From assembly GCA_937858935.1 (NCBI GenBank), contig CALLZX010000460.1, forward strand, positions 1-44,190: a stretch of 44,190 nt of DNA, in the 5' to 3' direction. Made by a program: the position numbers and the translations under genes. A model generated the notes under the pieces. It did not search any database, was not told the DNA's origin, and saw only the letters and a program-made list of their open reading frames with translations. Origin of the DNA: an uncultured Ignavibacteriales bacterium. Lineage in GTDB: Bacteria; Bacteroidota; Ignavibacteria; Ignavibacteriales; Ignavibacteriaceae. Positions 2,271 through 17,566 of the stretch are shown one piece after another (position 1 is the stretch's first letter; each line of letters begins with the position of its first letter).

Positions 2271-2272
2271 AA

Positions 2273-3673
2273 TTAATTGATCACTCTATTATTTATAGTA
2301 ACATCTTCAAATGAGAGGTTTTCAACATTCTCCAACAAATTATCGTTACCAACATTTTCAAATTTTGAATTTCTTATAATCAAATTTTTTACTTTTGAAT
2401 GATCATAAGCTTTAATCCAAATTGCGAAAGGACTTTTTTTACTTGTTATATTCTCAAGAATAACATTATTAACAGTTGGTGCAAATTTGCCGGCATCGCC
2501 TTCTTCGTAATAGTAATCTATTTTTAAAATCGCTTCACTAACTTCTCCGATGGTTAGATTTCGCACGAAAATATTTTCAAGAACTCCGCCTCGTACCGAA
2601 TTAGTTTTTATTCTTATTGCACGATCGAGATTGGGACTATCCATCCGGCAATCTTCTACAAATATATTTTTTACACCGCCAGAAATTTCACTCCCCAATA
2701 CTACACCACCGTGTCCATTTCTCATCACACAATTTTTAACAACAATATTTTCACTTGGAATATTAATCCTTCTTCCATCATTGTTTCTGCCCGATTTTAT
2801 TGCGATGCAATCGTCTCCATTATTAAAGTAACAATCCTGAATTAAAACGTCTTTTGAACTTTCTGGATTGCAGCCATCATTGTTTGGTCCTAATCCTTCT
2901 ATCTTAACATTCAGTACAGAAACATTCTGACAGAGGACAGGATTGATAAACCACATTGGTGAATCTTTTAAAGTTACTCCTTCTATCAATACATTTTTAC
3001 AATTATAAAACTGAATAAAATTTGGTCTTAAATAAAATCCTTCTCCAAATATTCTATGTTCCAGAGGAATATTATTCTCTCCCATTTCAAAAAGTTTATC
3101 TCTGCCATTTTTTTGATGAGGCATTCCCTCTTTCCAACCGAACTCTTCTTTCCCTTTCCAGCTCCACCAATTTTCATTGCTTGATTGTCCATCCAGTATT
3201 CCGCTTCCACTGATTGCAATATTTTCCTGTCCATCAGCATAAATCAATGAAGAGTAATTCATGCATTCAACACCCTCCCATCGAGAAAATACAAGTGGAA
3301 GATATTTATTTGGATCAGTAGAAAACTTAATAACAGAACCTTCTTTTAAAAAAAGATTTGTATTACTTTTTAGATGAATTGCTCCCGTTAAGAAAGTTCC
3401 TTTTGGTATAACAACTTTTCCACCACCACTTTTAACACATTCATCAATAGCAAGTTTAAATGAATTTGTACAATCGGTATTTCCATCACCAACAGCGCCA
3501 TACTTTGTAATATCAAAAATTTTATCATGAAAAGTTGGGGGTACAATTCTTTCTAGTATTTCATCAGCTTTCTTCCAATTGTCTGTAGCTTCAGTATGAT
3601 TACTCTTCGAACAACTTAACAGAAGAATGCTTGTGAAAGAGATGATAAAATATTTTATTAATGATTTAGTCAT
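2273..3673 (-). CDS. GH28 polygalacturonase-family lipoprotein
   Basis: A 466-residue right-handed beta-helix glycosidase with a lipoprotein signal (LLLSC, Cys21). An N-terminal FDITKYGAVGDGNTD segment opens the helix, as is usual in the family. The GH28 catalytic motifs are all visible: NNDGCNPES at 264-272, GDDCIAIKSG at 286-295, GHGGVVLGSE at 320-329 and RAIRIKT at 351-357. These supply the catalytic Asp residues, the His and the substrate-binding Arg-Lys pair. The family hydrolyses alpha-1,4-galacturonan or rhamnogalacturonan linkages. As a lipoprotein it probably acts at the cell envelope on oligomers already cut by the lyases. It sits 3 bp after the PL9 gene. Exo- or endo-activity is not decidable here. 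Confidence 0.93.
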   Translation of the reverse strand: MTKSLIKYFIISFTSILLLSCSKSNHTEATDNWKKADEILERIVPPTFHDKIFDITKYGAVGDGNTDCTNSFKLAIDECVKSGGGKVVIPKGTFLTGAIHLKSNTNLFLKEGSVIKFSTDPNKYLPLVFSRWEGVECMNYSSLIYADGQENIAISGSGILDGQSSNENWWSWKGKEEFGWKEGMPHQKNGRDKLFEMGENNIPLEHRIFGEGFYLRPNFIQFYNCKNVLIEGVTLKDSPMWFINPVLCQNVSVLNVKIEGLGPNNDGCNPESSKDVLIQDCYFNNGDDCIAIKSGRNNDGRRINIPSENIVVKNCVMRNGHGGVVLGSEISGGVKNIFVEDCRMDSPNLDRAIRIKTNSVRGGVLENIFVRNLTIGEVSEAILKIDYYYEEGDAGKFAPTVNNVILENITSKKSPFAIWIKAYDHSKVKNLIIRNSKFENVGNDNLLENVENLSFEDVTINNRVIN

Positions 3674-3676
3674 AAT

Positions 3677-5212
3677 TTATTTCATCAGTATCATTTTTTT
3701 TGTCTCAACAAAACCTTGTCCTGAGCCTGTCGAAGGATCACCTGCTTTAAGCTGATAGAAATATATTCCGGAACTTAATTGTGCATCGTTCATTGTAAAT
3801 TGTACATTGTATCTACCTGCAGATTTATATTCATCAACAAGTTTTGCGACTTCATTTCCAAGGACATCATAAACTTTTAATGTTTGCCAACTGGAGACGG
3901 AAGACTGCCAACTGATGTTAGTACTTGGATTAAATGGATTTGGATAATTCTGTTGAAGATAAAATTGATTTATCACCATATTTTCATTTTTAACCGAACT
4001 GGGAATACCATCTGTTTCAAAAGCCCCTAAATCCGGTGCTGCATCGTTATATGGTAAACCAACAGGAACACCAGCATCAATTAAATCACTGCCTGTGGCA
4101 AGATGCAAAAATTCTAAGTCTGGTAAACTTCCATCGGCGTTACGAGGTCCCCGAACTCCAAGTGTATCGATAGAAACAAAATCATCAATTGTAACATTAA
4201 AAGGACTCATCCAACTATTTGTTTGTTGAATTACAAAGCTTGCCAAAGAACCGTAACTATCTAATGCTAGATTATTAATTAAAATTGCTGTCTTGCTGCT
4301 ATCCAATGCAGTTGTAATTGAATAATTAGTTCCGTTCCTATAACCAGAGCAATTATAAAGAGTCATCGAACCTTTATTATTGTTCTGATCAAAACCTTTT
4401 ACCCTATTATCAAAAGCAACACAATTCTTTAAAGTAAAATTATGCATTAAATCTTTATTATCACTTCCGCCCATTTTAAAACCGTTACCATTTCCGGAAC
4501 TTGGACTTCCATCACTTAGATATCCATTAGCAAAACACCAGCAATTTTCCAGTACCGTATTCACATCGTTTGAAGGTCGAAGATATCCATCCCAGCCATC
4601 ATCTGAATTTTGCCAAGCTCTGCAGCCATAAAAATAGTTATTGGTTCCTACATTAAGCTTCGGCGCAAATCCATCGGCATTCCCCTGAGCTGGATCAGAA
4701 TTAAAGTATGAGTCACAATTAATGATCTGATTATTCGATGCACCACCGCTTAATTGTAATCCAGTATCGTGATTTTGATAAAAGGAACAGAATTCTATTA
4801 TATTGTTTGAACCACTTAAGTTCATACCATTATCACCAGCTCCTTTTATATCTAGTCCTTTAATGTGCCAATAACTGCCGCTTAATGTTATCGCACGATT
4901 AGTACTACTAATTGTCATTGAAGAAAAATCCAGAATAGGTTTTTCTTGATTGTATGAAAATAAATAGTATCTGCTGTTTACGTTCCCGCTTTTTGAAATA
5001 CTAATTTTATCAATATCTGATAGTAAATAAATTCCACCCTTAACAAAAATAGTATCACCCAGCTGAATCCTGTTAACAGCGGCTGGAATACTTTTTAATG
5101 GAAATTCCAAAGTGCCAGTGTTGTTATCATCACCATCAGGAGAAACAAATATCTGAGAATAACTCATGGAAAAAGTTATTATTAAATAAATTAAAATTTG
5201 CAGTTTCATCAT
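3677..5212 (-). CDS. PL9-family pectate lyase with T9SS C-terminal sorting domain
   Basis: A secreted parallel beta-helix protein of 511 residues counted from the MMKLQ start at 5212. An earlier ATG at 5227 lies inside the stem of an intercistronic hairpin (5223-5246) and would add MPSLN ahead of a good signal peptide, so it was not chosen. PL9 landmarks, numbered from MMKLQ, are GNADGFAPK (Asp179), NSDDGWDG (Asp204, Asp205, Asp208) and GNGNGFKMGG (Lys246). They correspond by pattern and spacing to the calcium-binding aspartates and catalytic lysine known for Pel9A. The last 85 or so residues are a type IX secretion tag with NYPNPFNPST and a terminal FVETKKMILMK. A repeat-like in-frame insertion (GDPSTGSGQG) interrupts that tag close to the end. 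The enzyme should cleave polygalacturonate by beta-elimination outside the cell. Confidence 0.9.
   Translation of the reverse strand: MMKLQILIYLIITFSMSYSQIFVSPDGDDNNTGTLEFPLKSIPAAVNRIQLGDTIFVKGGIYLLSDIDKISISKSGNVNSRYYLFSYNQEKPILDFSSMTISSTNRAITLSGSYWHIKGLDIKGAGDNGMNLSGSNNIIEFCSFYQNHDTGLQLSGGASNNQIINCDSYFNSDPAQGNADGFAPKLNVGTNNYFYGCRAWQNSDDGWDGYLRPSNDVNTVLENCWCFANGYLSDGSPSSGNGNGFKMGGSDNKDLMHNFTLKNCVAFDNRVKGFDQNNNKGSMTLYNCSGYRNGTNYSITTALDSSKTAILINNLALDSYGSLASFVIQQTNSWMSPFNVTIDDFVSIDTLGVRGPRNADGSLPDLEFLHLATGSDLIDAGVPVGLPYNDAAPDLGAFETDGIPSSVKNENMVINQFYLQQNYPNPFNPSTNISWQSSVSSWQTLKVYDVLGNEVAKLVDEYKSAGRYNVQFTMNDAQLSSGIYFYQLKAGDPSTGSGQGFVETKKMILMK
3714..3739. repeat. Repeat-like sequence inserted in frame in the PL9 T9SS tag
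   Basis: The plus strand contains the core CCTGAGCCTGTCGAAGG with weak inverted complementarity (TCCT at 3719-3722 against AGGA at 3734-3737). On the coding strand it reads DPSTGSGQG, in frame, between FYQLKAG and FVETKKM. The sister tag of the beta-helix gene (5260-6954) has FYKLESGKNVATQKM at the same place without this segment. I recall this core as a dispersed repeat in many environmental bacterial genomes. Only one copy was noticed in this window. Confidence 0.6.
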
Positions 5213-5222
5213 ATTCAAAGAA

Positions 5223-5246
5223 GGCATCCAGCAAAAACTGGATGCC
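5223..5246 (-). terminator. Intercistronic hairpin between the beta-helix and PL9 genes
   Basis: GGCATCCAG at 5223-5231 and CTGGATGCC at 5238-5246 form a perfect 9-bp stem with a 6-nt loop, 13 bp after the stop of the upstream gene (5260). On the minus strand it is followed by TTCTTT, a weak T-tract. It could act as a partial terminator or as an RNA-stabilising hairpin that sets different levels for the two genes. Confidence 0.6.
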
Positions 5247-5259
5247 CAGAAGATTTTTA

Positions 5260-6954
5260 TTATTTGAGCAACATCATTTTTTGTGTTGCTACATTTTTCC
5301 CAGATTCTAATTTATAGAAATAGATACCCGAAGAAAGATTGGAAGCGTTAAAATCAACAGTATGTCTGCCTGCATGAAGTTCCTGATTTAGAATGGTGAC
5401 AACTTTTTGTCCCAATAAATTATATACTGATACATTTGTCAACCCTGCTTCAGTTAAATTAAATGTAATTCTAGTGGATGGATTAAATGGATTAGGATAA
5501 TTCTGTTCAAGTGAAAATGATTGAGGGATATATCCTTCTTCAGTTTCAACATCAGTAATCCATGTCAGCCATTCAGCTTTTTTAGTTGGGAACCAATTTA
5601 AATCACCAACCGGAAAACCACCTTGTGAACCTGTGTATGCAGCAACAGATGTTGGATAAGAACAGTTTAGTGTGTCACGATAATATCGATATCCTTTTCT
5701 GTCCATATCATCTGTAGCTCTGTTCCAGAGTGATGAAGGAGTATTTTTGGTTTTGTTACCACCGCTTGGGCTCCAATACCAACGAATCATATTAACCATT
5801 ACTTTAGGTATGTTTGCTAACAAAATTGACTCCTTAGTAAAAGCTGTTAGCGAATCCGCACCAATTCTTGAATTAATATGCCAGGATAACGGTGAACCTT
5901 CAGTAACGTTATACTGATTAAAGAATCCCTGACCTGTATCAGAAATAGAATAGAAATTGTTAGAAATAAACCATTGAGTAGTATCGTTTGGTGCTGTAAA
6001 AATCCATGACATTCTATTATTTCCGTTTGGATATTTTTCACCTGTGTTAGCCCATTCAGCAGTTCTTGTAGCATCTGTTGAATCTTCACCACCTGCAAAT
6101 CCATCTATAATTAAATTATTTGTGATATAGAATTTTTCACCAACATTTCCTAATGATAAAAGACCATGAAAGGAAAACCCATTTACAAAGGAATTATGAT
6201 CGATTCTGCCATACTTTATTCCGCCAGTGCCCGCAAGTGGGTTAGCAAAATTGTAATGTCTTATAACACGATCCTGGAAGTTTACAAAAGTATTATTCAC
6301 AATAATTAAAGAATCACAGGATGCTTCTCTCAAGTCGATTCCTTTGCCTGCTCCTAAATTTGAAGTACTTAGAGCACCCATATTTGCGAAAATACAATTT
6401 GTTATTTCAACCTTTGTAGTAGCGCTACCTGTTCTTACATGCTGACCGTTAATATTTGTAAGTATACAACTATCAATTATGATATATGATCCTTCACCAT
6501 TTGTATTAATCAATCCACCTTGTACGTTATTAAAGTTAGAATCTACAGGTTCAAAGTATCCAGAGACAATAATATTTTTCATCTCAAGGTTACCACCACC
6601 TAATTGGAATAAATTTCCTGGAGGTCTATGTGGATTTGCACCTGTTCCTTGGGGATATTGGAAAATTATTGGCTTAGTTGTATTTCCAGCGACATTTTTC
6701 ATTTTAATTCTTAATGTCTTACCAGAAGGTACATTAAAAATCTCAGTATTAAGATACAACCCTCCTGGTTGCAGTAAATAAACACGATCAGGTAATAAGC
6801 CACTTGTTGCCGTTGTGTCTGCACGGATCTGTTCCATTAGAAATGTTCCAGGTCCGGTATATGGAGCTAATTCTAAATAGCTCTGAGCAAATGCAGAAAT
6901 TTGCAGCAGCATAGCAAGAAAAAGAATAATGCCACCGTATTTTTTTGCAATCAT
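5260..6954 (-). CDS. Secreted right-handed beta-helix protein with T9SS sorting domain, family unknown
   Basis: A 564-residue protein with an N-terminal signal peptide (IILFLAMLLQISAFAQ) and a clear SD (AAGGAG) before the ATG. Residues about 70-330 show short repeating strands rich in Asn, Ile and Val (IIIDSCILTNINGQHV, VEITNCIFANMGAL, LIIVNNTFVNFQDRVIRHYN), typical of pectate-lyase-like parallel beta-helices. The C-terminal 85 residues are a type IX secretion tag (SFSLEQNYPNPFNPST to KMMLLK). I cannot match it to a numbered polysaccharide lyase family. It lies between the receptor gene and the PL9 gene in the same direction, so a pectin-cleaving or pectin-binding role is likely but inferred. 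A candidate basic active-site residue is the Arg in DRVIRHYN. Confidence 0.8.
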   Translation of the reverse strand: MIAKKYGGIILFLAMLLQISAFAQSYLELAPYTGPGTFLMEQIRADTTATSGLLPDRVYLLQPGGLYLNTEIFNVPSGKTLRIKMKNVAGNTTKPIIFQYPQGTGANPHRPPGNLFQLGGGNLEMKNIIVSGYFEPVDSNFNNVQGGLINTNGEGSYIIIDSCILTNINGQHVRTGSATTKVEITNCIFANMGALSTSNLGAGKGIDLREASCDSLIIVNNTFVNFQDRVIRHYNFANPLAGTGGIKYGRIDHNSFVNGFSFHGLLSLGNVGEKFYITNNLIIDGFAGGEDSTDATRTAEWANTGEKYPNGNNRMSWIFTAPNDTTQWFISNNFYSISDTGQGFFNQYNVTEGSPLSWHINSRIGADSLTAFTKESILLANIPKVMVNMIRWYWSPSGGNKTKNTPSSLWNRATDDMDRKGYRYYRDTLNCSYPTSVAAYTGSQGGFPVGDLNWFPTKKAEWLTWITDVETEEGYIPQSFSLEQNYPNPFNPSTRITFNLTEAGLTNVSVYNLLGQKVVTILNQELHAGRHTVDFNASNLSSGIYFYKLESGKNVATQKMMLLK

Positions 6955-7033
6955 AATGTACTCCTTATGTTATTTAGTAGGTTTTATTTAATTGTTACTT
7001 GTGTAACTGGTATGATCGAGTTGAATTTTATTG

Positions 7034-10000
7034 TTAGAGTTCGAGAATTATCCCTAAGTCAGCAGTGATACCATAATGCTCGCTGGTATTGAGAATTTTG
7101 TATTCATTAACCCTGTTGTAAATGGAATTACTTTCTTTGATGTTATTCAGGTTGCTGATATTTAGAAGTACTGATAAATATTCTGTTATTTTTTGTCTAA
7201 GTGCTAAATCAATTCTTGTAAAACTGTTAATAATTTGATCACTTCTTCTGCTTGCTGTAAACAAATGATTATATTCTGATTGATAAAACAATGATACTCT
7301 ACCTGAGAAACCATCAATATCATAACCAAGAGAAATATTACCAAAAAACTTTGGTTGATCTTCCAGTTGTTGTTTTATCTGAACAGGACGATCCTCGTAA
7401 CGATAAAATGGAATTCCTGGAAACTCTGGCACATAATAAATAACAGTATCTGTAACAGCAGAAAGTATCACAGTTTCAGATTTCACTAAAGAGAAATTAT
7501 AAGAAAGAACTATATTCTTAAGTAAACCAGGCAGGAATGCAAAATTCATTTGATGTTCAAATTCTAATCCCCACACCTTTGTGTCTTGCGGTGAATTGTA
7601 AGGAACCGTCAATTGATAAGATCCGGTATGTAATGATTCCCATTGTAATCCAAGATACGATAAGAGTGTATCACCTGTAGTATTTATTTGGTTAAGAACA
7701 TGATACTGATCTTTAATTACCTTATAGAAAGCTGATAAAGATACCAACCCTATTTCATTTCCAAATAATGATGTGTTAATCTCGTAATTCCATGCTTGTG
7801 CTGTTTTAAGTGTTGGATTTCCAACAATTATTTCCTTATTCGCACTTACATCAGCACCTCTCCATGCAAAATATGTATTAAGTCTATAGTTAAAATCTGG
7901 TCTCGCCAACGCTTTATATACTGCTAATCTAATATTTAATGTTTCAGTAGGTTTAATATTTAAGTGAAAATTTGGAAGATAAATTGTTTCACTATGATTT
8001 GCGGATGTATCTCTACTAAGGTCCGGTGGAATAGGAAATCCCCCTGTTTGAACAGGCGAATACTTTGAGTAATAATCGTTATTTTCATTCTCAACTCTTA
8101 ATCCAGCAATAAATGTCGCAAATTGTCCAATGTTAAGAGTGTTCATTAAATATAAAGCCCCAACCCTCTCGGTGATATTATAGTCACCTGCTTTTACTGA
8201 AGGATCATTATTGTATTCAAGTTTGGTTCCATTTTCACTGATACCATTTATATTCAAATCATACCATTGATTCAATCTATCTCTATCGATAAGAGGATTT
8301 AGTAAGTACTGGTTAAAAAGATTCCACGATTCCGGATTAGAACCTAAAAATTCTGAAAATGAAGCTGATGTATTAGCAGGAGATTGAAGGTATCTCTGAT
8401 AGAAGGCATCAAAATATGAACCGGCAAGTTGTTTCTCTCGCATCGAGCCATCTTCTAATCGCTCAAATGGCTGCCAGTAACCTAAATAATAAGGGGCATA
8501 TAATGCACCATTAACATTTGTTCTATCTTTAATACGATATTTGCCGCCAAATTTTAATTCACCTGAAAATGAATTATCAATCGTATATGTTTTGGAAATA
8601 TTTAGAAATGCTGTTCGTTCTTTATCAAAGTTTTTTTGCGAATAATAATCTGCCTCGTAAAGAGTTGCAGCATTAAAATTATTATATGCAAATGGAATAA
8701 GTTGCTCCGGATTTGTTTTGATGTCAGGGGTATTCATCATTCCTGCACCAGTAATAGAAGGCTCAAGAAATTCCATATAATAATCGTATGGATAGTCAGA
8801 AGATGATTGTGCAAATGAAAGACCCCAGTTTAACTTAAAATCAAAAAGATTATTTGTTCCTGTTAGCGAACTATTAAACGTTTCTATCTCCTGTTCCCTA
8901 TCTCTAAAATTATATGTAACCGCGCTGCTGGATTCGCGTGCTGGGTAATCTCTTTCATGTGTAATATAATTTCTGTTAGTGCTACTATACACATTATTAA
9001 ATTTAATTGTTCCCTCGTCCGGAGTATTAAAATCAAGAAGTAAAGTTACTCCGTTTCTCTTTCTTATCTCATCAGTAAAGCGAACGGAAAAATTACTTAT
9101 TAAATAATCTGTTTGATTGAGAACACTTTGATCATAATCTAAATTAATTCTTTCACTACTTCTAATCCTATTTTCTAAATTTGCCAGAACTTGAACACCA
9201 AGTAATTGGTCGATAAATCTTTCACCATATTTTATTCCAAAATTGTATTGTTTAAAGGAGTTCATAATATCGTTATAACCACCTTTGAGATCTAGTCTTA
9301 TTGTTCGGTCGGTGGGTGCTCCTTTGGTACCTAAATTCACGCTGCCAGCAATTGCATCAGCATCTTTGTCAGCAGTTAATGCTTTATAAAGTTCTATACC
9401 AGCAAGAGAGCCTTGAGATATAGTTCCTAAATCTAAACCTCGACCACTCGCATCAGTTGGTGGAATTCCTATACCATCTATAGTAACCTTAACAAACTTA
9501 TCACTTAGTCCACGAAGCACAATTTTATTTGCCTCGCCACCAGAACGAAGAATAGAGACCCCAGGTAGTCTTCCCATTACTTCAGCTGCGTTTACATCTG
9601 GCAACTCCTGAATCTTTTCTTCTGATACAACATTTATAATTGTATTTGATGTTCGTTGTTGATTTATTGCAGAGACTTGTCCCATCATTTGTCCAGTAAC
9701 TACAACTTCCTCACCGACCAGTACATCAAGCGATAGTTGAATATTCAATTCTTTTGTTTCAGATCTTTTTATCGTTACCTCAGTTTCTTTTGCCTTATAA
9801 CCAATATATGAAACCTTAACAACATACTTACCTGAATCGATAGAACTGATTATATACCTGCCATCAATATTTGTGGCAGCTCCAAGTGATGTTCCAATTA
9901 GAAATACATTAGCACCAATCAACTCTTTATTAGTTAAAGAATCAGTCACAGTACCCTTAAGAATTCCTTGGGCTAAGGATTGTGTTATGCTAAGAAAAAG

Positions 10001-10039
10001 AATAAGGATGGTAACTTTAATGCAGTAAAATAATTTCAT
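7034..10039 (-). CDS. TonB-dependent outer-membrane receptor
   Basis: A 1001-residue receptor. It has a signal peptide (ILILFLSITQSLAQ), then a carboxypeptidase-regulatory-like beta-sandwich at about 24-110 (GILKGTVTDSLTNKELIGANV, DGRYIISSIDSGKYVVKVSYIGY). A TonB-box-like EEVVVTG and a plug domain with LPDVNAAEVMGRLPGVSILRSGG and a GSVNLGTKG end follow, then a long beta-barrel closing in an aromatic-poor ADLGIILEL strand. The family imports large ligands using TonB energy. It is the first gene of the pectin series after a promoter region with a candidate LacI operator, and has a good SD (AGGAGAGG). Import of oligogalacturonides is inferred from context. No SusD-like lipoprotein follows, unlike classic Bacteroidetes polysaccharide loci. 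A TonB-type transducer is encoded at 42299-42958. Confidence 0.93.
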   Translation of the reverse strand: MKLFYCIKVTILILFLSITQSLAQGILKGTVTDSLTNKELIGANVFLIGTSLGAATNIDGRYIISSIDSGKYVVKVSYIGYKAKETEVTIKRSETKELNIQLSLDVLVGEEVVVTGQMMGQVSAINQQRTSNTIINVVSEEKIQELPDVNAAEVMGRLPGVSILRSGGEANKIVLRGLSDKFVKVTIDGIGIPPTDASGRGLDLGTISQGSLAGIELYKALTADKDADAIAGSVNLGTKGAPTDRTIRLDLKGGYNDIMNSFKQYNFGIKYGERFIDQLLGVQVLANLENRIRSSERINLDYDQSVLNQTDYLISNFSVRFTDEIRKRNGVTLLLDFNTPDEGTIKFNNVYSSTNRNYITHERDYPARESSSAVTYNFRDREQEIETFNSSLTGTNNLFDFKLNWGLSFAQSSSDYPYDYYMEFLEPSITGAGMMNTPDIKTNPEQLIPFAYNNFNAATLYEADYYSQKNFDKERTAFLNISKTYTIDNSFSGELKFGGKYRIKDRTNVNGALYAPYYLGYWQPFERLEDGSMREKQLAGSYFDAFYQRYLQSPANTSASFSEFLGSNPESWNLFNQYLLNPLIDRDRLNQWYDLNINGISENGTKLEYNNDPSVKAGDYNITERVGALYLMNTLNIGQFATFIAGLRVENENNDYYSKYSPVQTGGFPIPPDLSRDTSANHSETIYLPNFHLNIKPTETLNIRLAVYKALARPDFNYRLNTYFAWRGADVSANKEIIVGNPTLKTAQAWNYEINTSLFGNEIGLVSLSAFYKVIKDQYHVLNQINTTGDTLLSYLGLQWESLHTGSYQLTVPYNSPQDTKVWGLEFEHQMNFAFLPGLLKNIVLSYNFSLVKSETVILSAVTDTVIYYVPEFPGIPFYRYEDRPVQIKQQLEDQPKFFGNISLGYDIDGFSGRVSLFYQSEYNHLFTASRRSDQIINSFTRIDLALRQKITEYLSVLLNISNLNNIKESNSIYNRVNEYKILNTSEHYGITADLGIILEL

Positions 10040-10092
10040 TCGGCCTCTCCTTTGGTGTAATGAAATAGTTTTGAAGGGATTGGTTTTTGTCT

Positions 10093-10108
10093 GGGCGTAG
10101 CTTCGCCC
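10093..10108 (-). other. GC-rich hairpin in the receptor 5' leader
   Basis: GGGCG at 10093-10097 pairs with CGCCC at 10104-10108 around a 6-nt loop, a conspicuously GC-rich element in AT-rich surroundings. It lies between the palindrome at 10125-10148 and the receptor start at 10039, so it is probably in the 5' leader of the mRNA. No T-tract follows. It could be a leader structure or a small dispersed repeat. Confidence 0.4.
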
Positions 10109-10124
10109 CTTGAGTCACATAACT

Positions 10125-10148
10125 GTTTACTTTATCGGTAAAGTAAAC
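10125..10148. promoter_or_regulatory. Candidate LacI-family operator upstream of the receptor gene
   Basis: A 24-bp palindrome with 10-bp arms GTTTACTTTA (10125-10134) and TAAAGTAAAC (10139-10148) around TCGG, so the centre is CG. Even length with a central CG is the usual design of LacI-family operators, and a LacI gene ends this cluster. On the minus strand a TTGACA hexamer (10188-10193) lies about 40 bp upstream of the palindrome and could be a -35 element. No convincing -10 box was identified. If the promoter is there, a repressor on the palindrome would block the receptor-to-LacI series. Confidence 0.65.
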
Positions 10149-10254
10149 GAAAAAGCACATCTCAAAAAAAACTAAAAAAATCTACATTGTCAAGAAAAAT
10201 TTTTTGATAGAATGAATTATTTATGATTTTTTGCGAAAATAGCTCGAAATCAAA

Positions 10255-11232
10255 CTATTTTTTTAGAAAATCACCAATAATATTTGCAGCGGATTTAAAC
10301 CACGGATCGAACAACCAAAATGTGTGAGGTGTATTGGGTAAGGTCTCAATCTTGTATTTAATTTTATGTTTTTCAAAAAGAATTACCGCAGAATCTCTTC
10401 CTGCATGGAATCTGGATATTGAGCTATTGATGAATAAGAACTCCGGACTGTTATCATTTATATAGTTTATCGGTGAAGCTTCAATCCATAGTTTTGGATT
10501 TTCTTTAAATGATGTACCGAACCAGAGTTTTCCGACTGATGGATATAAATCAGAAGTATCCTTTCCGCTTTCTGCTGGATGACTGAAATCAAGTATGCCA
10601 TCGAGGTCTATCACCGCGCTCACTTTTGATGAAATACCCAATAAGTAGTCAGATTCAAATTTTGGGATATTATTTGTAACACCACATAATGCCGCTAAGT
10701 GTCCGCCAGATGAACAACCTAATAAAGTCACTTTTGATGAATCTGCATTATATGCTTTGGCATTTTTTTTTAACCATTTAATTGCACTCTTAATATCCTG
10801 AACCGCAGCCGGATATTTTGCTTCAGGGGAGAGTCGATATTCTATTGTGGCACACAAAAATCCTTTAGAAGCCACTTTAGAAGCTAATGGATGTTGAAAT
10901 GATTTATCTCCAGATCGCCATCCACCTCCATGTATAAAGATGACTATTGGTATTGGTTTTTCAGATTCGGTAGGAAAGAATAAATCGAGTTTAAGATTTC
11001 TTTTCCCAATCGATTTATAAATTAAATTGGATACTTCCATCACATTCGCTGGAATTTCTTTTTTAGTAATTTTTATAAAAGGAAATCTTACTAACTCTTT
11101 TTGGTAATATCCATATACGGTATATGAAGAATCTTTTGGAATTCCTTCATCAGAAATATATGACTGAGGGAAAACTAAAATGGTGAACAGAATATACGCA
11201 ATGATAAATTTACTTTTCATTAATCTTATCAA
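10255..11232 (-). CDS. Secreted alpha/beta-hydrolase, carboxylesterase (Aes/BD-FAE-like)
   Basis: A 325-residue alpha/beta-hydrolase with a signal peptide. The oxyanion-hole motif is HGGGW at 101-105, the nucleophile elbow is GCSSG at 172-176 (Ser174), and the likely catalytic His is His303 in TPHTFW. YPAAVQDIKSAIKWLK between them is typical of the esterase/lipase family of COG0657. The gene overlaps the 3' end of the PL10 gene (23 bp from this start, 11 bp if the MKSKF start at 11220 is used), so the two are translationally coupled. The setting suggests removal of acetyl, methyl or feruloyl esters from pectin before lyase action. That substrate is inferred. No T9SS tag is present, so a periplasmic location is likely. 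Confidence 0.85.
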   Translation of the reverse strand: MIRLMKSKFIIAYILFTILVFPQSYISDEGIPKDSSYTVYGYYQKELVRFPFIKITKKEIPANVMEVSNLIYKSIGKRNLKLDLFFPTESEKPIPIVIFIHGGGWRSGDKSFQHPLASKVASKGFLCATIEYRLSPEAKYPAAVQDIKSAIKWLKKNAKAYNADSSKVTLLGCSSGGHLAALCGVTNNIPKFESDYLLGISSKVSAVIDLDGILDFSHPAESGKDTSDLYPSVGKLWFGTSFKENPKLWIEASPINYINDNSPEFLFINSSISRFHAGRDSAVILFEKHKIKYKIETLPNTPHTFWLFDPWFKSAANIIGDFLKK

Positions 11233-12370
11233 GCCATTTGGGATAATTATCTAAGACTACTTGCGGATCATAAACATACCAGACATAGCCGATCCTTCGT
11301 TCTCTTTCAACTTCTGAAAATGAATAAACAATATTTCCATCTCTATTGCAGAATATTGGGAGGTGAGTTTCTAGACTATAATATCTAGCCCATATTGGTT
11401 TTGCATTTGTATCTTTAACAACAATTTTATCTTGATCTGAATTTCGATATTGATACTCTGAATGCGGAGCACTAATTGTCTCCACTTTAATTCCAAATAT
11501 TTTCGATGATTTAAACCAACTTACTGCGGATTGTATAGACTTAATTATTCTTTCACTAGGTTTTTTCAAGGACATTAGAAATTCAACTATCTCCGAACTT
11601 TCGCCATTGCAAATAGCAGCAGGTTCATATGACCTAGCATTTTCTGGAACTAGAGTAATGTTGTTATGTTGCTGGCACCAGACTAAAAGTTTATCACCTT
11701 CTTTTATTTGTGAATTTAATATGCACTCAATCCCCTTTTCAAAAGAAATAAAAACTTTTTCATATAGTTTCTTATCGAGAATATTATATTCATCCTCTCT
11801 ATTTACGATTCGTTGTAAAACTTTCATCACCCCAATCATCGCACCATCATTAAAAGTTATATACTTACGATATCCACTTGTGTCAGGATAAAATTGAGGC
11901 CATCCCCCACTAGAATATTGCGCTGATATAATAAATTTAATTCCCTCTGTAAAAGCGATTTTATATTTTTCTTTTTTCGAGATACTATATGTTTTTGCTA
12001 AATAGTTCAGATGTGAGAATGTAGCAGAATTATCAAAACAGGTATTAAAAATATTCTTTGAATTCTTTATTGCATCTGCTTGTTCACTAGTTAAAATTGC
12101 CTGCATATCATAATTCTTCGGCCATCCGCCATTATTTTTTTGATACAACAAGATATTATCAGCAATTTTTTCAAATTCTTTGGCTGAATATTTTTTTTGA
12201 TCTTCCAAAGGTTCAATCAGTTTATCAGTATCCTTTATATCATTCCAATGATGTGCGCTATTCTCAAATTCGAATGTATCTATGATGCTGAATGTTTCAT
12301 TCTTTTTCTCCTGTGCGAAGTTATTTAAATGAATCATAATAAGTATTAAAGACAGTACTCTACATTTCAT
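11210..12370 (-). CDS. PL10-family pectate lyase
   Basis: A 386-residue protein with an N-terminal signal peptide (MKCRVLSLILIMIHLNNFAQ). The alpha-helical toroid signatures of PL10 are clear: NNGGWPKNYDM at 79-89, FDNSAT at 112-117, SGGWPQFYP at 154-162, FNDGAM at 173-178, WCQQHN at 231-236, and the C-terminal WARYY (327-331), NRDG (342-345) and ERERRIGYVWY (355-365). The family cleaves polygalacturonate by calcium-dependent beta-elimination. There is no T9SS tag, so it probably works in the periplasm on imported fragments, complementing the tagged PL9 enzyme. It is the first gene of a two-gene unit with the esterase. Its upstream region shows no copy of the palindrome found before the receptor gene. 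Confidence 0.93.
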   Translation of the reverse strand: MKCRVLSLILIMIHLNNFAQEKKNETFSIIDTFEFENSAHHWNDIKDTDKLIEPLEDQKKYSAKEFEKIADNILLYQKNNGGWPKNYDMQAILTSEQADAIKNSKNIFNTCFDNSATFSHLNYLAKTYSISKKEKYKIAFTEGIKFIISAQYSSGGWPQFYPDTSGYRKYITFNDGAMIGVMKVLQRIVNREDEYNILDKKLYEKVFISFEKGIECILNSQIKEGDKLLVWCQQHNNITLVPENARSYEPAAICNGESSEIVEFLMSLKKPSERIIKSIQSAVSWFKSSKIFGIKVETISAPHSEYQYRNSDQDKIVVKDTNAKPIWARYYSLETHLPIFCNRDGNIVYSFSEVERERRIGYVWYVYDPQVVLDNYPKWLDKINEK

Positions 12371-12769: not shown

Positions 12770-12859
<90 letters not shown>

Positions 12860-12964
12860 GAATTTGTGTTTCAAATATATCGAATCAATCTAACTTGGCA
12901 AAACAATTTGAGGTTTTTAATAACTAATAAAATTTATTTTGTTAATTTTACCTTGTTGATTTTT

Positions 12965-13053
12965 GGAAAGGTGGCAGAGCGGCTGAATGCGGCGGTCTCG
13001 AAAACCGTTATATCGGGAAACTGATATCGAGGGTTCAAATCCCTCCCTTTCCG
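12965..13053 (+). tRNA. tRNA-Ser (CGA anticodon)
   Basis: Acceptor GGAAAGG (12965-12971) pairs with CCTTTCC (13046-13052) followed by discriminator G. The anticodon loop CTCGAAA gives CGA, which reads UCG serine codons. A long variable arm and the GGTTCAAATCC T-arm are present. CCA is not encoded (CTC follows). It is divergent from the tRNA-Ser(GGA) gene, with 105 bp between them that must contain both promoters. Confidence 0.96.
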
Positions 13054-13076
13054 CTCGATCATTAATCATAAAAAAA

Positions 13077-13100
13077 AATACCGCTACTAAGAGCGGTATT
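13077..13100 (-). terminator. Rho-independent terminator of the cytochrome cluster
   Basis: AATACCGCT (13077-13085) and AGCGGTATT (13092-13100) form a 9-bp stem with loop ACTAAG. On the minus strand the stem is followed by a long T-run (from the A-run at about 13068-13078). It lies just after the stop of the 7-heme lipoprotein gene (13122). In the plus direction it could also weakly end tRNA-Ser(CGA). Confidence 0.9.
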
Positions 13101-13121
13101 TAATTTACTTAAAAGTTTAGA

Positions 13122-14021
13122 TTAGTAAATGTACTCACTACCGAAAATATTCAGCTTTCCATTTACGTGTTTATTTTTATCGAGTATTGTATAAGTATTA
13201 CCTGTCACTTCAATAATACCAGTATGGCAAATTCCACAATCCTGATTTGGAGGATGTGTGCCACCTTCTGCTACTGTTTTTGGTAATGGATTTCCTGTAG
13301 CAACATCCCCATGACAAGTACCACAAGCCGAACCTTGCGATTGAGCAGTAAAGGATACTATATTATCTAAATTACCATTTTTAAAGAAACCATGACAGTA
13401 AGTATTAGCACATGTTCCAGCATTTGAGTCAAATGAAGGGTTAGGTATAAAATTTCCTAAACTTGGTTGATAATTAAAACCACCAGACACATTTGTAATT
13501 AATCTAGTAAAAGAACCGAATACTAATTCAGCACCAGCTGTCTGATCAATATGAATTGGATCTGAAAAGCCATTTGGTATTGTATGGCATTCAGTACATT
13601 CAACAACTAAACCAATTCTATTATCCATTAAATGTTTAGAATGTGCACCAACTCCTCTTTCACTTGAGAGTATTGCCCCGCTTGTAGCTCTTGGAGGAGC
13701 AATTCTCAAAGGATTAGCAAAATCACCATGGCACGTATTACAAGCTTCCGGTCCACCAGGTGTTGTATGACAATCATAACAACTCGACCCAGCTGTTCCA
13801 CCACTATAATTCGCAGAATGACACTGCTGACATTGTTTCATATCCCAATTATTATCAGCAATTATATTTCCATGGAAATTGGGTGAGGTTGGATTTACTA
13901 TTCCATCTTTATGCAGAGCTAATTCCGGTACTGTAGTATTAAAGTCTTCTTTTAATTCACTACAACTTATAAAAAGCATTGAGCCTAAAAAAATTGTTAA
14001 ATATAAAATTAAATACTTCAT
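13122..14021 (-). CDS. Heptaheme c-type cytochrome lipoprotein with a CX4CH site
   Basis: A 299-residue protein with a lipoprotein signal (LFISC, Cys20). Six CXXCH heme sites are CQQCH 64-68, CYDCH 81-85, CNTCH 94-98, CTECH 142-146, CGTCH 233-237 and CGICH 262-266. A seventh, CANTYCH at 204-210, has four residues between the cysteines. The CX4CH...CXXCH arrangement in the C-terminal half resembles the Geobacter CxxxxCH...CXXCH repeat family. It is the last gene of a four-gene unit with a 14-heme cytochrome and an outer-membrane barrel. That suggests it is the outer-membrane, possibly surface-exposed, electron-transfer partner, as OmcB or MtrC are in known conduits. The surface location is inferred. 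Confidence 0.88.
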   Translation of the reverse strand: MKYLILYLTIFLGSMLFISCSELKEDFNTTVPELALHKDGIVNPTSPNFHGNIIADNNWDMKQCQQCHSANYSGGTAGSSCYDCHTTPGGPEACNTCHGDFANPLRIAPPRATSGAILSSERGVGAHSKHLMDNRIGLVVECTECHTIPNGFSDPIHIDQTAGAELVFGSFTRLITNVSGGFNYQPSLGNFIPNPSFDSNAGTCANTYCHGFFKNGNLDNIVSFTAQSQGSACGTCHGDVATGNPLPKTVAEGGTHPPNQDCGICHTGIIEVTGNTYTILDKNKHVNGKLNIFGSEYIY

Positions 14022-14057
14022 TAGTTTTTCCGTAAAAATATTTTCAGTTTTAATAAA

Positions 14058-15266
14058 TTACTGTACTCCATGGCAGTAACCACAGAAACCAACACCTGGT
14101 TGAGATTGCGGTGAAGCACTTGTATGACAATTATAACATACGGATGAATTATCGTTATGCCAATCACCCTCCTCACTATCATTCATAAAACCAACAGGAT
14201 GAGTTTTGGGATTTGTACCTTTGATTCCATCAGCATCAAAATGGCAAGTAATACAAGTAGGATCCGCACCATTAACGTCATGACAAGACATACATCGCTC
14301 AATATCCCGCTTAGCTAAGATTGCGTGATCTCCACCACCGGAACCAACACCAAAAGTTTTAAAGTCTGATTTCAAGTGAGAAGCAGGTACGATTCCGCCA
14401 AAAGCAAAATCCTGATCCTCTGACTGATGACACTCAACACAGAATGTTTCTGTTTGATGGCAAGTCTGACATTCAGATGTTTTGCCGCGCGAATCTATTC
14501 CGTGTGAGAATCTGTAATTAAGTTCATGCACACGATTGATCGCCTGTACTTTTGCACCATCAACAAAATTGCTTGGATAATACGGTTGATAGAAATCATT
14601 AAGAGTATTTGTTTCAGTAATTCCAGTAGTTGCAACATGGCAATCTTCACAACTTTGATTATCATGACACATTACACAATTTGCATTAAACTCAAGAGCA
14701 GCAAATTTATGCATTTTTGCAAAGTTAACAACTTGATGATCCTGTGGTTTTAAGTTTGCAGTTGAGATATGACAAGATTCACAAGCATTTGAGGCTACTG
14801 TTTTATCATTGTGGCATGAATAGCAGGTTTCCATTTTGGGATGAGCACCTGCAGATTGCCAGCTATAATCAACTTCACTTATTCCCTTGTGGCAGGATTC
14901 ACAATTAACATCTTTGTCTGTCAAATGAATTTTATGATTGAACAATAATTCAGATTTGGTTTTAACAAGTGCTTCATAATTATCATCATAATGACAAGTT
15001 GAACATTCTTCTTCATTATCAACTTCGTGACAAGCAGAACAATTATCGTGATTTGGAAATAGTGAATCGTTCAAACTTACACTTTCGGTTGCTGCAGAAT
15101 GGCAGGATTGACAATCAGCCAAATCTTTGTGAAGTGAGTGTGAAAATTTAATTCTACCTTCATTTGTAACAAGTTTAATGTCTTCCGAAGAATCCATGGC
15201 ACCAATTAAAAGGAATGTAATCATTCCTAAAAAAACAAACAGATATAAAACTTTTAATTTTTGCAT
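14058..15266 (-). CDS. 14-heme c-type cytochrome
   Basis: A 402-residue protein with 14 CXXCH motifs, the first CQSCH at 52-56 and the last CGYCH at 395-399, and many additional His residues for bis-His ligation (HSLH, HKIH, FNHKIHL). An N-terminal hydrophobic segment (VLYLFVFLGMITFLLIGAM) without a lipobox acts as signal peptide or anchor. Heme spacing changes along the chain, with a cytochrome c3/c7-like pattern at the N-terminus and a longer gap near 213-265. It sits 10 bp after the barrel gene and 36 bp before the lipoprotein cytochrome gene. By analogy to MtrA-type partners it would carry electrons across the periplasm into the barrel. The role is inferred from context, while the heme content is read directly. 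Confidence 0.9.
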   Translation of the reverse strand: MQKLKVLYLFVFLGMITFLLIGAMDSSEDIKLVTNEGRIKFSHSLHKDLADCQSCHSAATESVSLNDSLFPNHDNCSACHEVDNEEECSTCHYDDNYEALVKTKSELLFNHKIHLTDKDVNCESCHKGISEVDYSWQSAGAHPKMETCYSCHNDKTVASNACESCHISTANLKPQDHQVVNFAKMHKFAALEFNANCVMCHDNQSCEDCHVATTGITETNTLNDFYQPYYPSNFVDGAKVQAINRVHELNYRFSHGIDSRGKTSECQTCHQTETFCVECHQSEDQDFAFGGIVPASHLKSDFKTFGVGSGGGDHAILAKRDIERCMSCHDVNGADPTCITCHFDADGIKGTNPKTHPVGFMNDSEEGDWHNDNSSVCYNCHTSASPQSQPGVGFCGYCHGVQ

Positions 15267-15276
15267 ATTTAGAATC

Positions 15277-16542
15277 TTAGATGTTTAAGTTAAACCAGTA
15301 GTTAAGTTTGAAGAACAATCTTAAATCATTCTTATAAATTTTGTTATCCATATACTGTCCTTGTAAATCGAAGGATAGCATACGGAATGGACGAATATTA
15401 GTTCCAACCATTAATGTAGTAATGTTATTTGCTTCAGCATCAGGATTTAGTTTATAATTGGTATAAGACAATCCAACCGAAGGTGTTAACAACCCTTCAA
15501 AAAAAGTATAGCCGGTATATAACGAAACAGCATCCAATTCTCCTGCATAACCAAATGTTTTACGATAATTTATATTTCCGTAAGCTGTGGAAATACCGAG
15601 TCCAACTCTTTGAGAATTTTCGTCCTTATACTGAACGTTTCCGAACTTACCTAATAGAGTAAAAGTTTTGCTGATTTGATAGTCTGCACCAAGTTCTATT
15701 TCGTGAGTATTTCCATAATCAAATACAGCAAATATTGAGTTGTATCTTATTTTTGGTTCACGATAATTGTAATAAAGATTTAGTGCCCAATTTTCAACTG
15801 CTTCTGTTCGTGCATCAAATTCAAACTTGGATGTTTGATTGAAGTTTAAATCATAATCATAACGGGTAAAGATAGAAACTAAACCTTTTTGATTGTAATT
15901 GACTTCACCGGTAATAAATTCATACTGATTAGATTTATTTTCAATATCAACTTCAATAAGATTTAAATCCGGGTTTAATCTGTTAACGGTATACTTCTGT
16001 GGTTGAAAATTTTTATTTACATAACCTACACCAATTTGAAAATTAGGAATTACAGTGGTTGTAAACTTTCCGCCATATAAATAATTATCTTCAAAATTTT
16101 CGATAAGCTTGAATTCTTGATATGCTGGAACATTTCCACCAAAATATGCATTTAGTTTGTACTCCGCTTTCTTTAAAGTAAGTGACGCACCATCATAAAC
16201 GCCACCAGCAATGCTATTGATGATTGGCTGTCTACCTAATCTAACTGTAGCTACGTCCATAATATCCCTGGCTTCTAAATACAGGTTATAAAACCTTAAC
16301 CTTGGATCAGATTGCATTTTGGACATAACATCTGTTTCAAAATTAAGATATGATCTTACGGATACTTTACCATAGTTTAAATTAAGGTTCAACATCTCAT
16401 AAGCTCTTAAATACTGTTCGGAAGAATTGAGTGAGTCATATCTTTCAAAAGTATAAAGAGAACTTGAGAATCTTCCATTAATATTTTGAGCTGAAATAAA
16501 TGCGGTAGCTCCTATAAAGAGCAAAAGTATTAATTTTTTCAT
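15277..16542 (-). CDS. Outer-membrane beta-barrel (putative porin of a porin-cytochrome conduit)
   Basis: A 421-residue protein with a signal peptide (MKKLILLLFIGATAFISAQ) and a long run of amphipathic, aromatic-rich strands (LNLNYGKVSVRSYLNFE, TVRLGRQPI, YLYGGKFTTT, NINYRKTFGYAGELDAVSLYTGY), ending in a final strand with aromatic residues (LFFKLNYWFNLNI). It contains no cysteine pair and no enzymatic motif. The alternation and the C-terminal aromatic pattern indicate an outer-membrane barrel of roughly 16-20 strands. It lies between the tetraheme and 14-heme cytochrome genes in one co-directional unit. This suggests a sheath that holds a cytochrome across the membrane, like MtrB or OmbB, although no specific sequence likeness can be claimed. 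Confidence 0.78.
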   Translation of the reverse strand: MKKLILLLFIGATAFISAQNINGRFSSSLYTFERYDSLNSSEQYLRAYEMLNLNLNYGKVSVRSYLNFETDVMSKMQSDPRLRFYNLYLEARDIMDVATVRLGRQPIINSIAGGVYDGASLTLKKAEYKLNAYFGGNVPAYQEFKLIENFEDNYLYGGKFTTTVIPNFQIGVGYVNKNFQPQKYTVNRLNPDLNLIEVDIENKSNQYEFITGEVNYNQKGLVSIFTRYDYDLNFNQTSKFEFDARTEAVENWALNLYYNYREPKIRYNSIFAVFDYGNTHEIELGADYQISKTFTLLGKFGNVQYKDENSQRVGLGISTAYGNINYRKTFGYAGELDAVSLYTGYTFFEGLLTPSVGLSYTNYKLNPDAEANNITTLMVGTNIRPFRMLSFDLQGQYMDNKIYKNDLRLFFKLNYWFNLNI

Positions 16543-16575
16543 TTAATTTTCTGTAAGAATTATTCTCTAATAAAA

Positions 16576-17121
16576 TTAATTTTGAGTTTTTGGTACTGAG
16601 TGTTTGATCTTCTGCCAAGCTTCATCAACGTTCATATCAACAAATGTAGGACTTTCAACATTATGACATCCAATACAAAAACTTTCAAGTTTATCATGCA
16701 TAACCAATCCATTCTTTATAGCCAAATCTTTGTCTTTCATTACTTTCATATCTTTATAATCAGATCCTGCTCCGTGACAAGTTTCGCACTGCACACCATC
16801 TTCAACTTTAAATTTCTTACCTTTTAATGATGCATCAATATTATAACCCGAAACGTGACATTTCAAACATTCAGGCGTTTCAACTGCTAAAGTACTAAAC
16901 CCTTTTTCTTTTGCGATTTGATTAGCTTTATCTGTCTTTAGTGTCTCATAAGCTTTTGAGTGTTTGCTGTTTTGCCAGATGGATAGTTGGCTGCCTTGTT
17001 TTTCTGTTTTATGGCACATTGCACACGCTTCCACACCAATATATGAATGACCGTTTTGAGCTTGAATTAATATGAAAGGTGTGAGAATAAGTGTAGCAAG
17101 GATGTAAGTAAAGAGTTTCAT
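16576..17121 (-). CDS. Tetraheme cytochrome c554-like protein
   Basis: A 181-residue protein starting at MKLFTYILATLILT (17121), chosen because a strong SD (AGGAGG) lies 5 bases upstream and a signal peptide follows directly. The frame extends upstream to 17193 but that would bury the signal. Four heme sites are CAMCH, CLKCH, CETCH and CIGCH. The order SYIGVEACAMCH, WQNSKHSKAYETL, ECLKCHVSGY and GVQCETCHGAGSDY matches the cytochrome c554/multiheme family (PF13435-like), which includes proteins of nitrite and hydroxylamine metabolism and general periplasmic electron carriers. Here it heads the porin-cytochrome unit, so it is likely the periplasmic feeder. A catalytic role is not excluded. Confidence 0.88.
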   Translation of the reverse strand: MKLFTYILATLILTPFILIQAQNGHSYIGVEACAMCHKTEKQGSQLSIWQNSKHSKAYETLKTDKANQIAKEKGFSTLAVETPECLKCHVSGYNIDASLKGKKFKVEDGVQCETCHGAGSDYKDMKVMKDKDLAIKNGLVMHDKLESFCIGCHNVESPTFVDMNVDEAWQKIKHSVPKTQN

Positions 17122-17566
17122 AAGACCTCCTAAATGATGAATAAATCCTGATGCAATATTCAAAGAATTATTGATAAAGGCAACTAAAAACAAAGTTGAT
17201 TATTAAATAATCGACATATTAATTATTTGCCATTTTATCTAATTAGCAATTTATGACAATTTAGGTACCAAAAAAATTATTTGATTTTAATTAGTCGATT
17301 GAATGATCATTCTTTAATTTGAAAAATTTGATCAACATTCTCCCAATACTGATAATTGTTATAATCAATCTTACCCCTAACGATATTGTTAATAGTTTGA
17401 ATTGCCACCAAGGTTTTGAATTTAAGAAACGAATATTTTTCATTATGTTTGTGTAGCAAAAAATATCGTTAAAATATTTTTTGTCTGATTTACTTCTTTG
17501 ATTTCTTTCTATCATAGAATAATCAGATAATATGGACAATTCTCTAATTAAACTAAAAATTCTATA
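17122..17566. other. Intergenic stretch upstream of the cytochrome and SET genes
   Basis: About 445 bp with no confident gene. It holds the SD (17123-17130 region) and presumably the promoter of the cytochrome unit on the minus strand, and the promoter of the SET gene on the plus strand. It is very AT-rich. One weak minus-strand frame is listed separately. Confidence 0.5.
17291..17539 (-). CDS. Possible small membrane protein, unknown
   Basis: A frame of up to 82 codons. The part from MKNIRFLNSKPWWQF onward (about 50 residues) has one hydrophobic stretch (LLTISLGVRLIITIISIG) flanked by basic residues, as in small single-span membrane proteins. No SD is visible before either start and no family is recognised. 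The region is AT-rich, where chance hydrophobic frames are common, so the gene is doubtful. Confidence 0.2.
   Translation of the reverse strand: MSILSDYSMIERNQRSKSDKKYFNDIFCYTNIMKNIRFLNSKPWWQFKLLTISLGVRLIITIISIGRMLIKFFKLKNDHSID

What the first reader, a model, noticed from the sequence alone, without database searches (positions are those of the whole stretch)
13122..17121. Four-gene porin-cytochrome cluster for electron transfer across the outer membrane
A tetraheme c554-like protein, a beta-barrel without other motifs, a 14-heme cytochrome and a 7-heme lipoprotein are encoded in one direction with gaps of 10-36 bp and a shared terminator. This is the layout of known outer-membrane conduits (periplasmic cytochrome, porin, surface lipoprotein cytochrome), giving 25 hemes in total. 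The proteins do not show the familiar MtrA/MtrC or OmaB/OmcB length patterns, so this may be a separate conduit type of the Ignavibacteria group. Heme counts and gene order are read from sequence; the conduit function is inferred.
Basis: partly seen in the sequence, partly recalled or inferred. Interest (0 to 1): 0.72.

Follow-up and report, generated by a model that had tools for sequence, protein, structure and literature searches.

The report
Ignavibacteria outer-membrane electron-conduit gene cluster
Four neighbouring genes encode an outer-membrane pore and three heme-packed proteins that most likely carry electrons out of the cell; the same arrangement was described in 2014 in a close relative, and it turns out to be carried by most species of the class Ignavibacteria.

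Summary
On the minus strand lie a 4-heme c554-like protein (A), a 421-aa barrel (B), a 402-aa 14-heme cytochrome (C) and a 7-heme lipoprotein (D, six CXXCH plus one CX4CH), with gaps of 33, 10 and 36 bp and a terminator after D. B folds confidently as a 22-24-strand outer-membrane barrel without a plug.

The conduit reading is supported, but the cluster type is not new. Shi et al. 2014 (PMC4245776) list the same layout as the pcc cluster IALB_1840-1837 of Ignavibacterium album: periplasmic cytochrome, porin, 400-aa 14-heme cytochrome, outer-membrane cytochrome with an atypical motif. They noted that its porin and periplasmic cytochrome fall outside the other Pcc groups.

What is added here: B is found in 136 of 164 genomes of the order and 128 of 197 sampled genomes of the class, and in none sampled elsewhere in the phylum. 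B and C are gained and lost together: 134 genomes have both, 25 neither, and the 5 exceptions are cut by contig ends. D varies from 7 to 29 hemes. Relatives place inner-membrane quinol modules beside the cluster, or cytochromes with type IX secretion tails; I found no paper on the latter. Function remains untested.

The parts
16576..17121 (-). Gene A: 181-aa tetraheme cytochrome of the cytochrome c554 family, predicted soluble periplasmic electron carrier feeding the conduit
   Evidence: 4 CXXCH; Pfam Cytochrome_C554 E 4e-20; PDB best match Nitrosomonas c554 1bvb E 2e-7; found directly upstream of B in most relatives
15277..16542 (-). Gene B: 421-aa outer-membrane beta-barrel with signal peptide, no plug, predicted sheath for the 14-heme cytochrome
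   Evidence: AlphaFold model from 71 sequences, pLDDT 85, 24 strand segments; hits are outer-membrane barrels: FimD/PapC ushers, 22-strand TonB receptor barrels Z about 20 over about 350 residues; present in 54 of 59 relatives, normally one copy
14058..15266 (-). Gene C: 402-aa 14-heme cytochrome, predicted wire through the barrel
   Evidence: 14 CXXCH; all 14 heme Cys/Cys/His sets invariant in 69 homologues; c7-type repeats, best PDB match the cytochrome 3ov0 E 1e-10; directly downstream of B in 75 of 80 loci by the length and heme filter, others mostly cut by contig ends
13122..14021 (-). Gene D: 299-aa 7-heme lipoprotein (6 CXXCH + 1 CX4CH), predicted surface terminal cytochrome
   Evidence: lipobox FISC|S and heme motifs; TIGR01904 CxxxxCH/CxxCH domain above cut-off; least conserved of the four (median 41% identity against 55-57%) and variable in heme number in relatives
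13076..13101 (-). Intrinsic terminator after D, palindromic so possibly bidirectional
   Evidence: 10-bp stem and T-run; fold z -3.1
17232..17259 (-). Promoter-like site TTGTCA-16-TAAAAT upstream of A; weak, consensus match only
   Evidence: promoter-like sites are common in this AT-rich region (35 found, 24 expected)

Best explanation
This is a porin-cytochrome (Pcc) trans-outer-membrane electron conduit of the Ignavibacterium type. Quinol is oxidised at the inner membrane by separately encoded multiheme complexes. The tetraheme protein A shuttles electrons through the periplasm to the 14-heme protein C. [quoted passage not shown] Shown here: the gene content, heme motifs, barrel fold, lipoprotein signal, operon-like layout, co-inheritance and neighbouring quinol modules in relatives. 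Inferred: complex formation, placement of C in B, direction of flow and the acceptor.
For: Motifs and layout; barrel fold with a plug-free 22-24-strand barrel; the order A-B-C-D in nearly all relatives and B followed by C in 29 of 30 loci from more distant members of the class; B and C both present in 134, both absent in 25 of 164 genomes, the 5 exceptions cut by contig ends; invariant 14-heme core against a variable surface protein D with 7 to 29 hemes; quinol modules adjacent in relatives: cytochrome b561-fused 16-18-heme proteins, and Rieske plus cytochrome b plus 11-heme protein plus NapC/NirT-type cytochrome; T9SS-tailed multiheme cytochromes adjacent in 17 of 80 loci, which points to the cell surface. 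Published precedent: IALB_1837-1840 (PMC4245776). Melioribacter roseus, which carries the cluster (G056, contig of 3,300,414 bp as in PMC3534657), respires Fe(III).
Against: No experiment on any member. I. album, with the same cluster, was reported unable to use Fe(III) or Mn(IV) oxides (PMC4245776), so the acceptor is unknown. The model of C is confident only for about its first 150 residues, and the fold matches are to the inner-membrane-anchored ActA subunit of alternative complex III, so the cellular location of C is not settled. No complex could be predicted here.
Confidence: 0.82

Rival explanations
1. Same conduit, but working inwards or both ways: electrons enter from a partner cell, Fe(II), humics or a cathode and are fed through C and A to periplasmic oxidases or nitrous oxide or nitrite reductases.
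For: I. album does not respire Fe(III) or Mn(IV) oxides (PMC4245776); Mtr-type conduits are known to run inwards in Fe(II) oxidisers (same paper); direction cannot be read from sequence.
Against: The adjacent modules in relatives are of quinol-oxidising type, and M. roseus, an organotroph, respires Fe(III) (PMC3534657). Shi et al. knew of no pcc cluster in an Fe(II) oxidiser.
Confidence: 0.1
2. C is anchored in the inner membrane by its hydrophobic N-terminus, as ActA is, and the cluster is a periplasmic respiratory chain; B is an ordinary porin for a soluble substrate that D reduces.
For: The C model's only fold matches of note are ActA-type subunits of alternative complex III; B also resembles substrate porins structurally.
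Against: B is co-inherited with C, every exception being cut by a contig end, has no match to a substrate-porin family (only a sub-threshold Porin_4 hit), and D is a lipoprotein whose heme number varies as expected of a surface protein.
Confidence: 0.06
3. The c554-like protein A marks a nitrogen-oxide or hydroxylamine pathway, and the cluster handles nitrogen compounds rather than extracellular electron transfer.
For: Pfam Cytochrome_C554 and the match to Nitrosomonas c554.
Against: Only the heme fold is shared. The NCBIfam CycA equivalog cut-off is missed by far (50 of 400 bits), and no hydroxylamine oxidoreductase-like gene was recognised in the neighbourhoods inspected.
Confidence: 0.02

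Closest known systems
Ignavibacterium album JCM 16511 pcc cluster IALB_1840-1839-1838-1837 (Shi et al. 2014, PMC4245776)
   Same: Same four-gene order; porin; 400-aa 14-heme periplasmic cytochrome; outer-membrane cytochrome with an atypical heme motif; extra periplasmic cytochrome before the porin.
   Different: Different species. Sequences of I. album were not available here for a direct comparison, so orthology rests on layout, size, heme number and the single-copy nature of the family.
Geobacter sulfurreducens OmbB-OmaB-OmcB (Pcc)
   Same: Small porin plus periplasmic cytochrome plus surface lipoprotein cytochrome; conduit function shown in proteoliposomes (cited in PMC4245776).
   Different: OmaB has 8 hemes and OmcB 12. 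Shi et al. place the I. album proteins outside the five Pcc groups. Later surveys call Ignavibacteria porins OmbB-like (PMC7399161, PMC6137239); not tested here.
Shewanella MtrCAB
   Same: Same principle: barrel, multiheme wire and surface cytochrome.
   Different: MtrB is much larger (28 predicted strands in PMC4245776), and MtrA and MtrC carry 10 hemes each. The 14-heme C and 421-aa B do not fit; C's best PDB sequence matches are c7-type, not MtrA.
Kuenenia and Anaeromyxobacter two-gene pcc clusters
   Same: Porin next to a 12-14-heme periplasmic cytochrome of 338-344 aa (PMC4245776).
   Different: They lack the surface cytochrome and the tetraheme gene; sequences not compared here.

Membership tests
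Porin-cytochrome (Pcc) clusters as defined by Shi et al. [quoted passage not shown]
   Plug-free barrel with 24 strand segments, probably 22-24 membrane strands, pLDDT 85, outer-membrane barrel matches
Porin-cytochrome (Pcc) clusters as defined by Shi et al. 2014 | Adjacent gene for a periplasmic multiheme cytochrome (5-14 hemes) | tested here: met
   C, 14 hemes, 10 bp from B; location itself is inferred
Porin-cytochrome (Pcc) clusters as defined by Shi et al. 2014 | In most cases a gene for an outer-membrane cytochrome | tested here: met
   D, lipoprotein with 7 heme motifs; surface exposure inferred
Porin-cytochrome (Pcc) clusters as defined by Shi et al. 2014 | Proteins form a complex that moves electrons across the outer membrane | not testable with these tools
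   needs purification or electrochemistry
I. album IALB_1837-1840 type | Gene order cytochrome, porin, about 400-aa 14-heme cytochrome, outer-membrane cytochrome with atypical motif | tested here: met
   Layout identical to the published description; same-genus genomes show C of 400-404 aa with 14 hemes and D with 6+1 or 5+2 motifs
I. album IALB_1837-1840 type | Sequence orthology to the IALB proteins | not tested
OmbB porin family | Sequence homology to Geobacter OmbB | not tested
   No Geobacter sequence available; published statements differ in emphasis (PMC4245776: distantly related; PMC7399161 and PMC6137239: OmbB-like or Geobacter-like)
MtrCAB | Ten-heme MtrA and MtrC with a much larger MtrB barrel | tested here: not met
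   14 and 7 hemes and a 421-aa barrel with 24 strand segments; DmsE and OmcA/MtrC family cut-offs missed

The most novel reading that the evidence does not exclude
In part of the Ignavibacteria the conduit discharges onto multiheme cytochromes that reach the cell surface through the type IX secretion system. In 17 of 80 loci a 459-811-aa, 8-15-heme protein with a T9SS type A sorting domain lies beside the conduit genes, in most directly upstream of A, and the T9SS core protein SprA is present in nearly all such genomes tested. This would be a delivery route for extracellular cytochromes for which I found no paper in the held library (searches for T9SS or type IX secretion with multiheme cytochrome or extracellular electron transfer: 0 papers).
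Probability: 0.5. Interest if true: 0.6.

Novelty: new member of a known kind. Interest (0 to 1): 0.38.

Why it matters
The conduit is usually mentioned for one or two Ignavibacteria. Here it appears as a near-core, single-copy trait of the order, with a divergent form across the class, while the surface cytochrome and inner-membrane quinol module are exchangeable. That suggests extracellular electron exchange is ancestral to a class common in aquifers, sediments, reactors and bioanodes, including a species reported not to reduce Fe(III), so the natural acceptor is an open, testable question. The invariant B/C core gives a clean marker for surveys. T9SS-tailed cytochromes beside it suggest another way to dress a cell surface with hemes.

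Tried and rejected
Sequence search of the barrel profile against the PDB gave nothing useful, and Pfam and NCBIfam have no family for it above threshold. MtrB did not appear in the listed fold matches; this is not evidence that it differs. The structure model of C was poor beyond residue 150 (pLDDT 58), so no heme-wire length was derived. The 46-heme cluster on contig C207 was considered as the same system and set aside: its 538-aa protein gave no Pfam family, did not come up in the barrel search of the genome, and is patchy in relatives (30 of 59). A plasmid search gave no match. MtrC/MtrF domain hits (PF22113) in A and C were disregarded, as every multiheme protein here gives them through CXXCH motifs.

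Full report
CHECK OF THE OBSERVATION. D has six CXXCH motifs and one CX4CH (CANTYCH), so the count of seven depends on that atypical site; the CxxxxCH/CxxCH domain model TIGR01904 scores above its cut-off there. The three cytochromes are the only reading frames in the 44-kb window with two or more CXXCH motifs. The terminator after D is a 10-bp stem followed by a run of T. A promoter-like site lies about 110 bp upstream of A, but such sites are frequent here by chance.

WHAT THE PARTS ARE. A is a cytochrome c554-family tetraheme protein (Pfam E 4e-20; PDB 1bvb) with a signal peptide and no lipobox. B has no Pfam or NCBIfam family above threshold. Its AlphaFold model from 71 homologues has mean pLDDT 85 with 24 strand segments after the signal peptide. 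Foldseek and VIA-align return only outer-membrane barrels at the top: the FimD and PapC ushers and the barrel part of TonB-dependent receptors, Z about 20 over about 350 residues at 4-5 A. Since those receptors carry a separate plug domain and B has none, B is a wide barrel of 22-24 strands with an unfilled lumen. C is a 14-heme protein of c7-like repeats; the cysteines and histidine of all 14 motifs are invariant in 69 homologues. Its model is only reliable for the N-terminal 150 residues, and its fold matches are ActA-type subunits of alternative complex III. D is a lipoprotein (FISC|S).

CONSERVATION. B is found in 54 of 59 relatives, normally once per genome, and in 136 of 164 genomes of the order. 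It occurs in 128 of 197 sampled genomes of the class, where other orders carry a divergent form. None of the phylum-wide sample outside the class matched (57 of 395, all listed matches within the class). C was searched independently in the same 164 genomes and found in 137. Crossing the two lists gives 134 with both and 25 with neither. The five exceptions (G065, G069, G070, G078, G121) all hold a partial gene that runs to within 6 bases of a contig end. In 80 named loci C follows B with 13-14 hemes and about 400 aa in 75, and A precedes B in about 70. In 30 loci chosen from more distant members of the class, 29 show B followed by an 11-14-heme C; in the remaining one (L205) a long overlapping frame displaced the gene in my listing. 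D is the least conserved (median identity to the window 41%, against 55-57% for A, B and C). Its heme number ranges from 6+1 to 28+1. An invariant wire-and-sheath core with a variable outer end is what a conduit predicts.

ELECTRON SUPPLY. In the window's genus the four genes stand alone, but relatives place inner-membrane quinol modules directly upstream. In Melioribacter roseus and its family these are 16-18-heme proteins, most with a fused cytochrome b561 domain. In other orders the module is a Rieske protein, a cytochrome b and an 11-heme cytochrome preceded by a NapC/NirT-type multiheme protein, or a 17-heme NapC/NirT-type protein with a separate cytochrome b561. The window's own genome holds a 13-heme cytochrome b561 protein next to a NapC/NirT-type protein on contig C128, a plausible unlinked donor. 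This fixes the inner end of the pathway by association only.

SURFACE END. In 17 of 80 loci a further multiheme protein (8-15 hemes) with a T9SS type A sorting domain lies next to the cluster, in most of them directly upstream of A (sorting domains confirmed by profile for the eight proteins scanned, by sequence pattern for the rest). The T9SS core protein SprA is present in 10 of 11 genomes tested, the exception being 76% complete, and in none of 14 control genomes. Two literature searches combining T9SS or type IX secretion with multiheme cytochrome or extracellular electron transfer returned no paper in the held library. This applies to relatives; the window's cluster has no such gene.

COMPARISON WITH WHAT IS KNOWN. 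Shi et al. 2014 (PMC4245776) reported the pcc cluster of I. album: IALB_1840 periplasmic cytochrome, IALB_1839 porin, IALB_1838 of 400 residues and 14 hemes (then the largest Pcc periplasmic cytochrome), and IALB_1837 outer-membrane cytochrome with an atypical motif. They noted that 1839 and 1838 lie outside the five Pcc groups and that I. album does not use Fe(III) or Mn(IV) oxides. Order, size, heme number and the atypical motif match the window one for one. Later surveys mention Geobacter-like or OmbB-like Pcc in Ignavibacteria (PMC7399161; PMC6137239). M. roseus, recognised here as G056 because its contig length equals the published chromosome size of 3,300,414 bp (PMC3534657), has the cluster and respires Fe(III). 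The finding is therefore most likely an orthologue of a described cluster, not a new conduit type. I could not compare sequences with I. album or Geobacter directly, so orthology with the IALB genes is inferred.

VERDICT. Trans-outer-membrane conduit, confidence about 0.8. Shown: parts, fold of B, co-inheritance, neighbours. Inferred: C inside B, D on the surface, outward flow, the acceptor. The interest lies less in the cluster itself than in its near-universality in the order, its exchangeable ends and the T9SS-tailed cytochromes.

Noticed in passing
L072, L079, L084-L086, L088, L090, L093-L095, L098, L101, L108, L115, L118, L122, L130 (upstream or downstream of the conduit): Multiheme cytochromes (8-15 hemes) with a type IX secretion C-terminal sorting domain beside the conduit genes; no paper found that links T9SS and extracellular electron transfer.
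   Followed up: partly
G000:C207, L162:772-7378: A 20-heme 524-aa protein, a 46-heme 1146-aa protein and a 538-aa protein with no Pfam match and a C-terminal F are encoded in a row; a possible second conduit or cytochrome system, patchy in relatives (30 of 59).
   Followed up: partly
window 15277-16542, protein residues 261-278: The most invariant stretch of the barrel (RYNSIF(S/A)VF) has the lowest model confidence, as if it folds only against a partner such as the 14-heme protein.
   Followed up: no
window 14058-15266, protein residues 1-150: Fold matches of the 14-heme protein's model are ActA-type subunits of alternative complex III, and its N-terminus could be an uncleaved membrane anchor.
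   Followed up: partly
L209, L210, L223, L226 and similar: In other orders of the class a Rieske protein, cytochrome b and 11-heme cytochrome lie directly upstream of the conduit, joining a bc-type complex and an outer-membrane conduit in one gene block.
   Followed up: partly
L219 (G297:C6): Tandem duplication of the conduit: two barrel, 14-heme and lipoprotein sets side by side, with two tetraheme genes between them.
   Followed up: no
L166:561-2464 and L167:8326-9864 (window's own genome): Two further multiheme genes followed by T9SS tails that appear interrupted, one by a change of frame and one by an in-frame stop; assembly error or decay.
   Followed up: no
L035:3991-5121, L046:4107-5294, L209:3176-4348: A second lipoprotein cytochrome with collagen-like Gly-Pro repeats after the signal sequence follows the conduit in several relatives.
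   Followed up: no
window 1053-12370: Pectin-type polysaccharide degradation locus (GH28-like, lyase-like proteins, TonB-dependent receptor, esterase), with T9SS tails on the proteins at 3677-5227 and 5260-6954; names by eye only.
   Followed up: no
window 12770-13054: Two tRNA-Ser genes (GGA and CGA) on opposite strands lie just downstream of the conduit.
   Followed up: no
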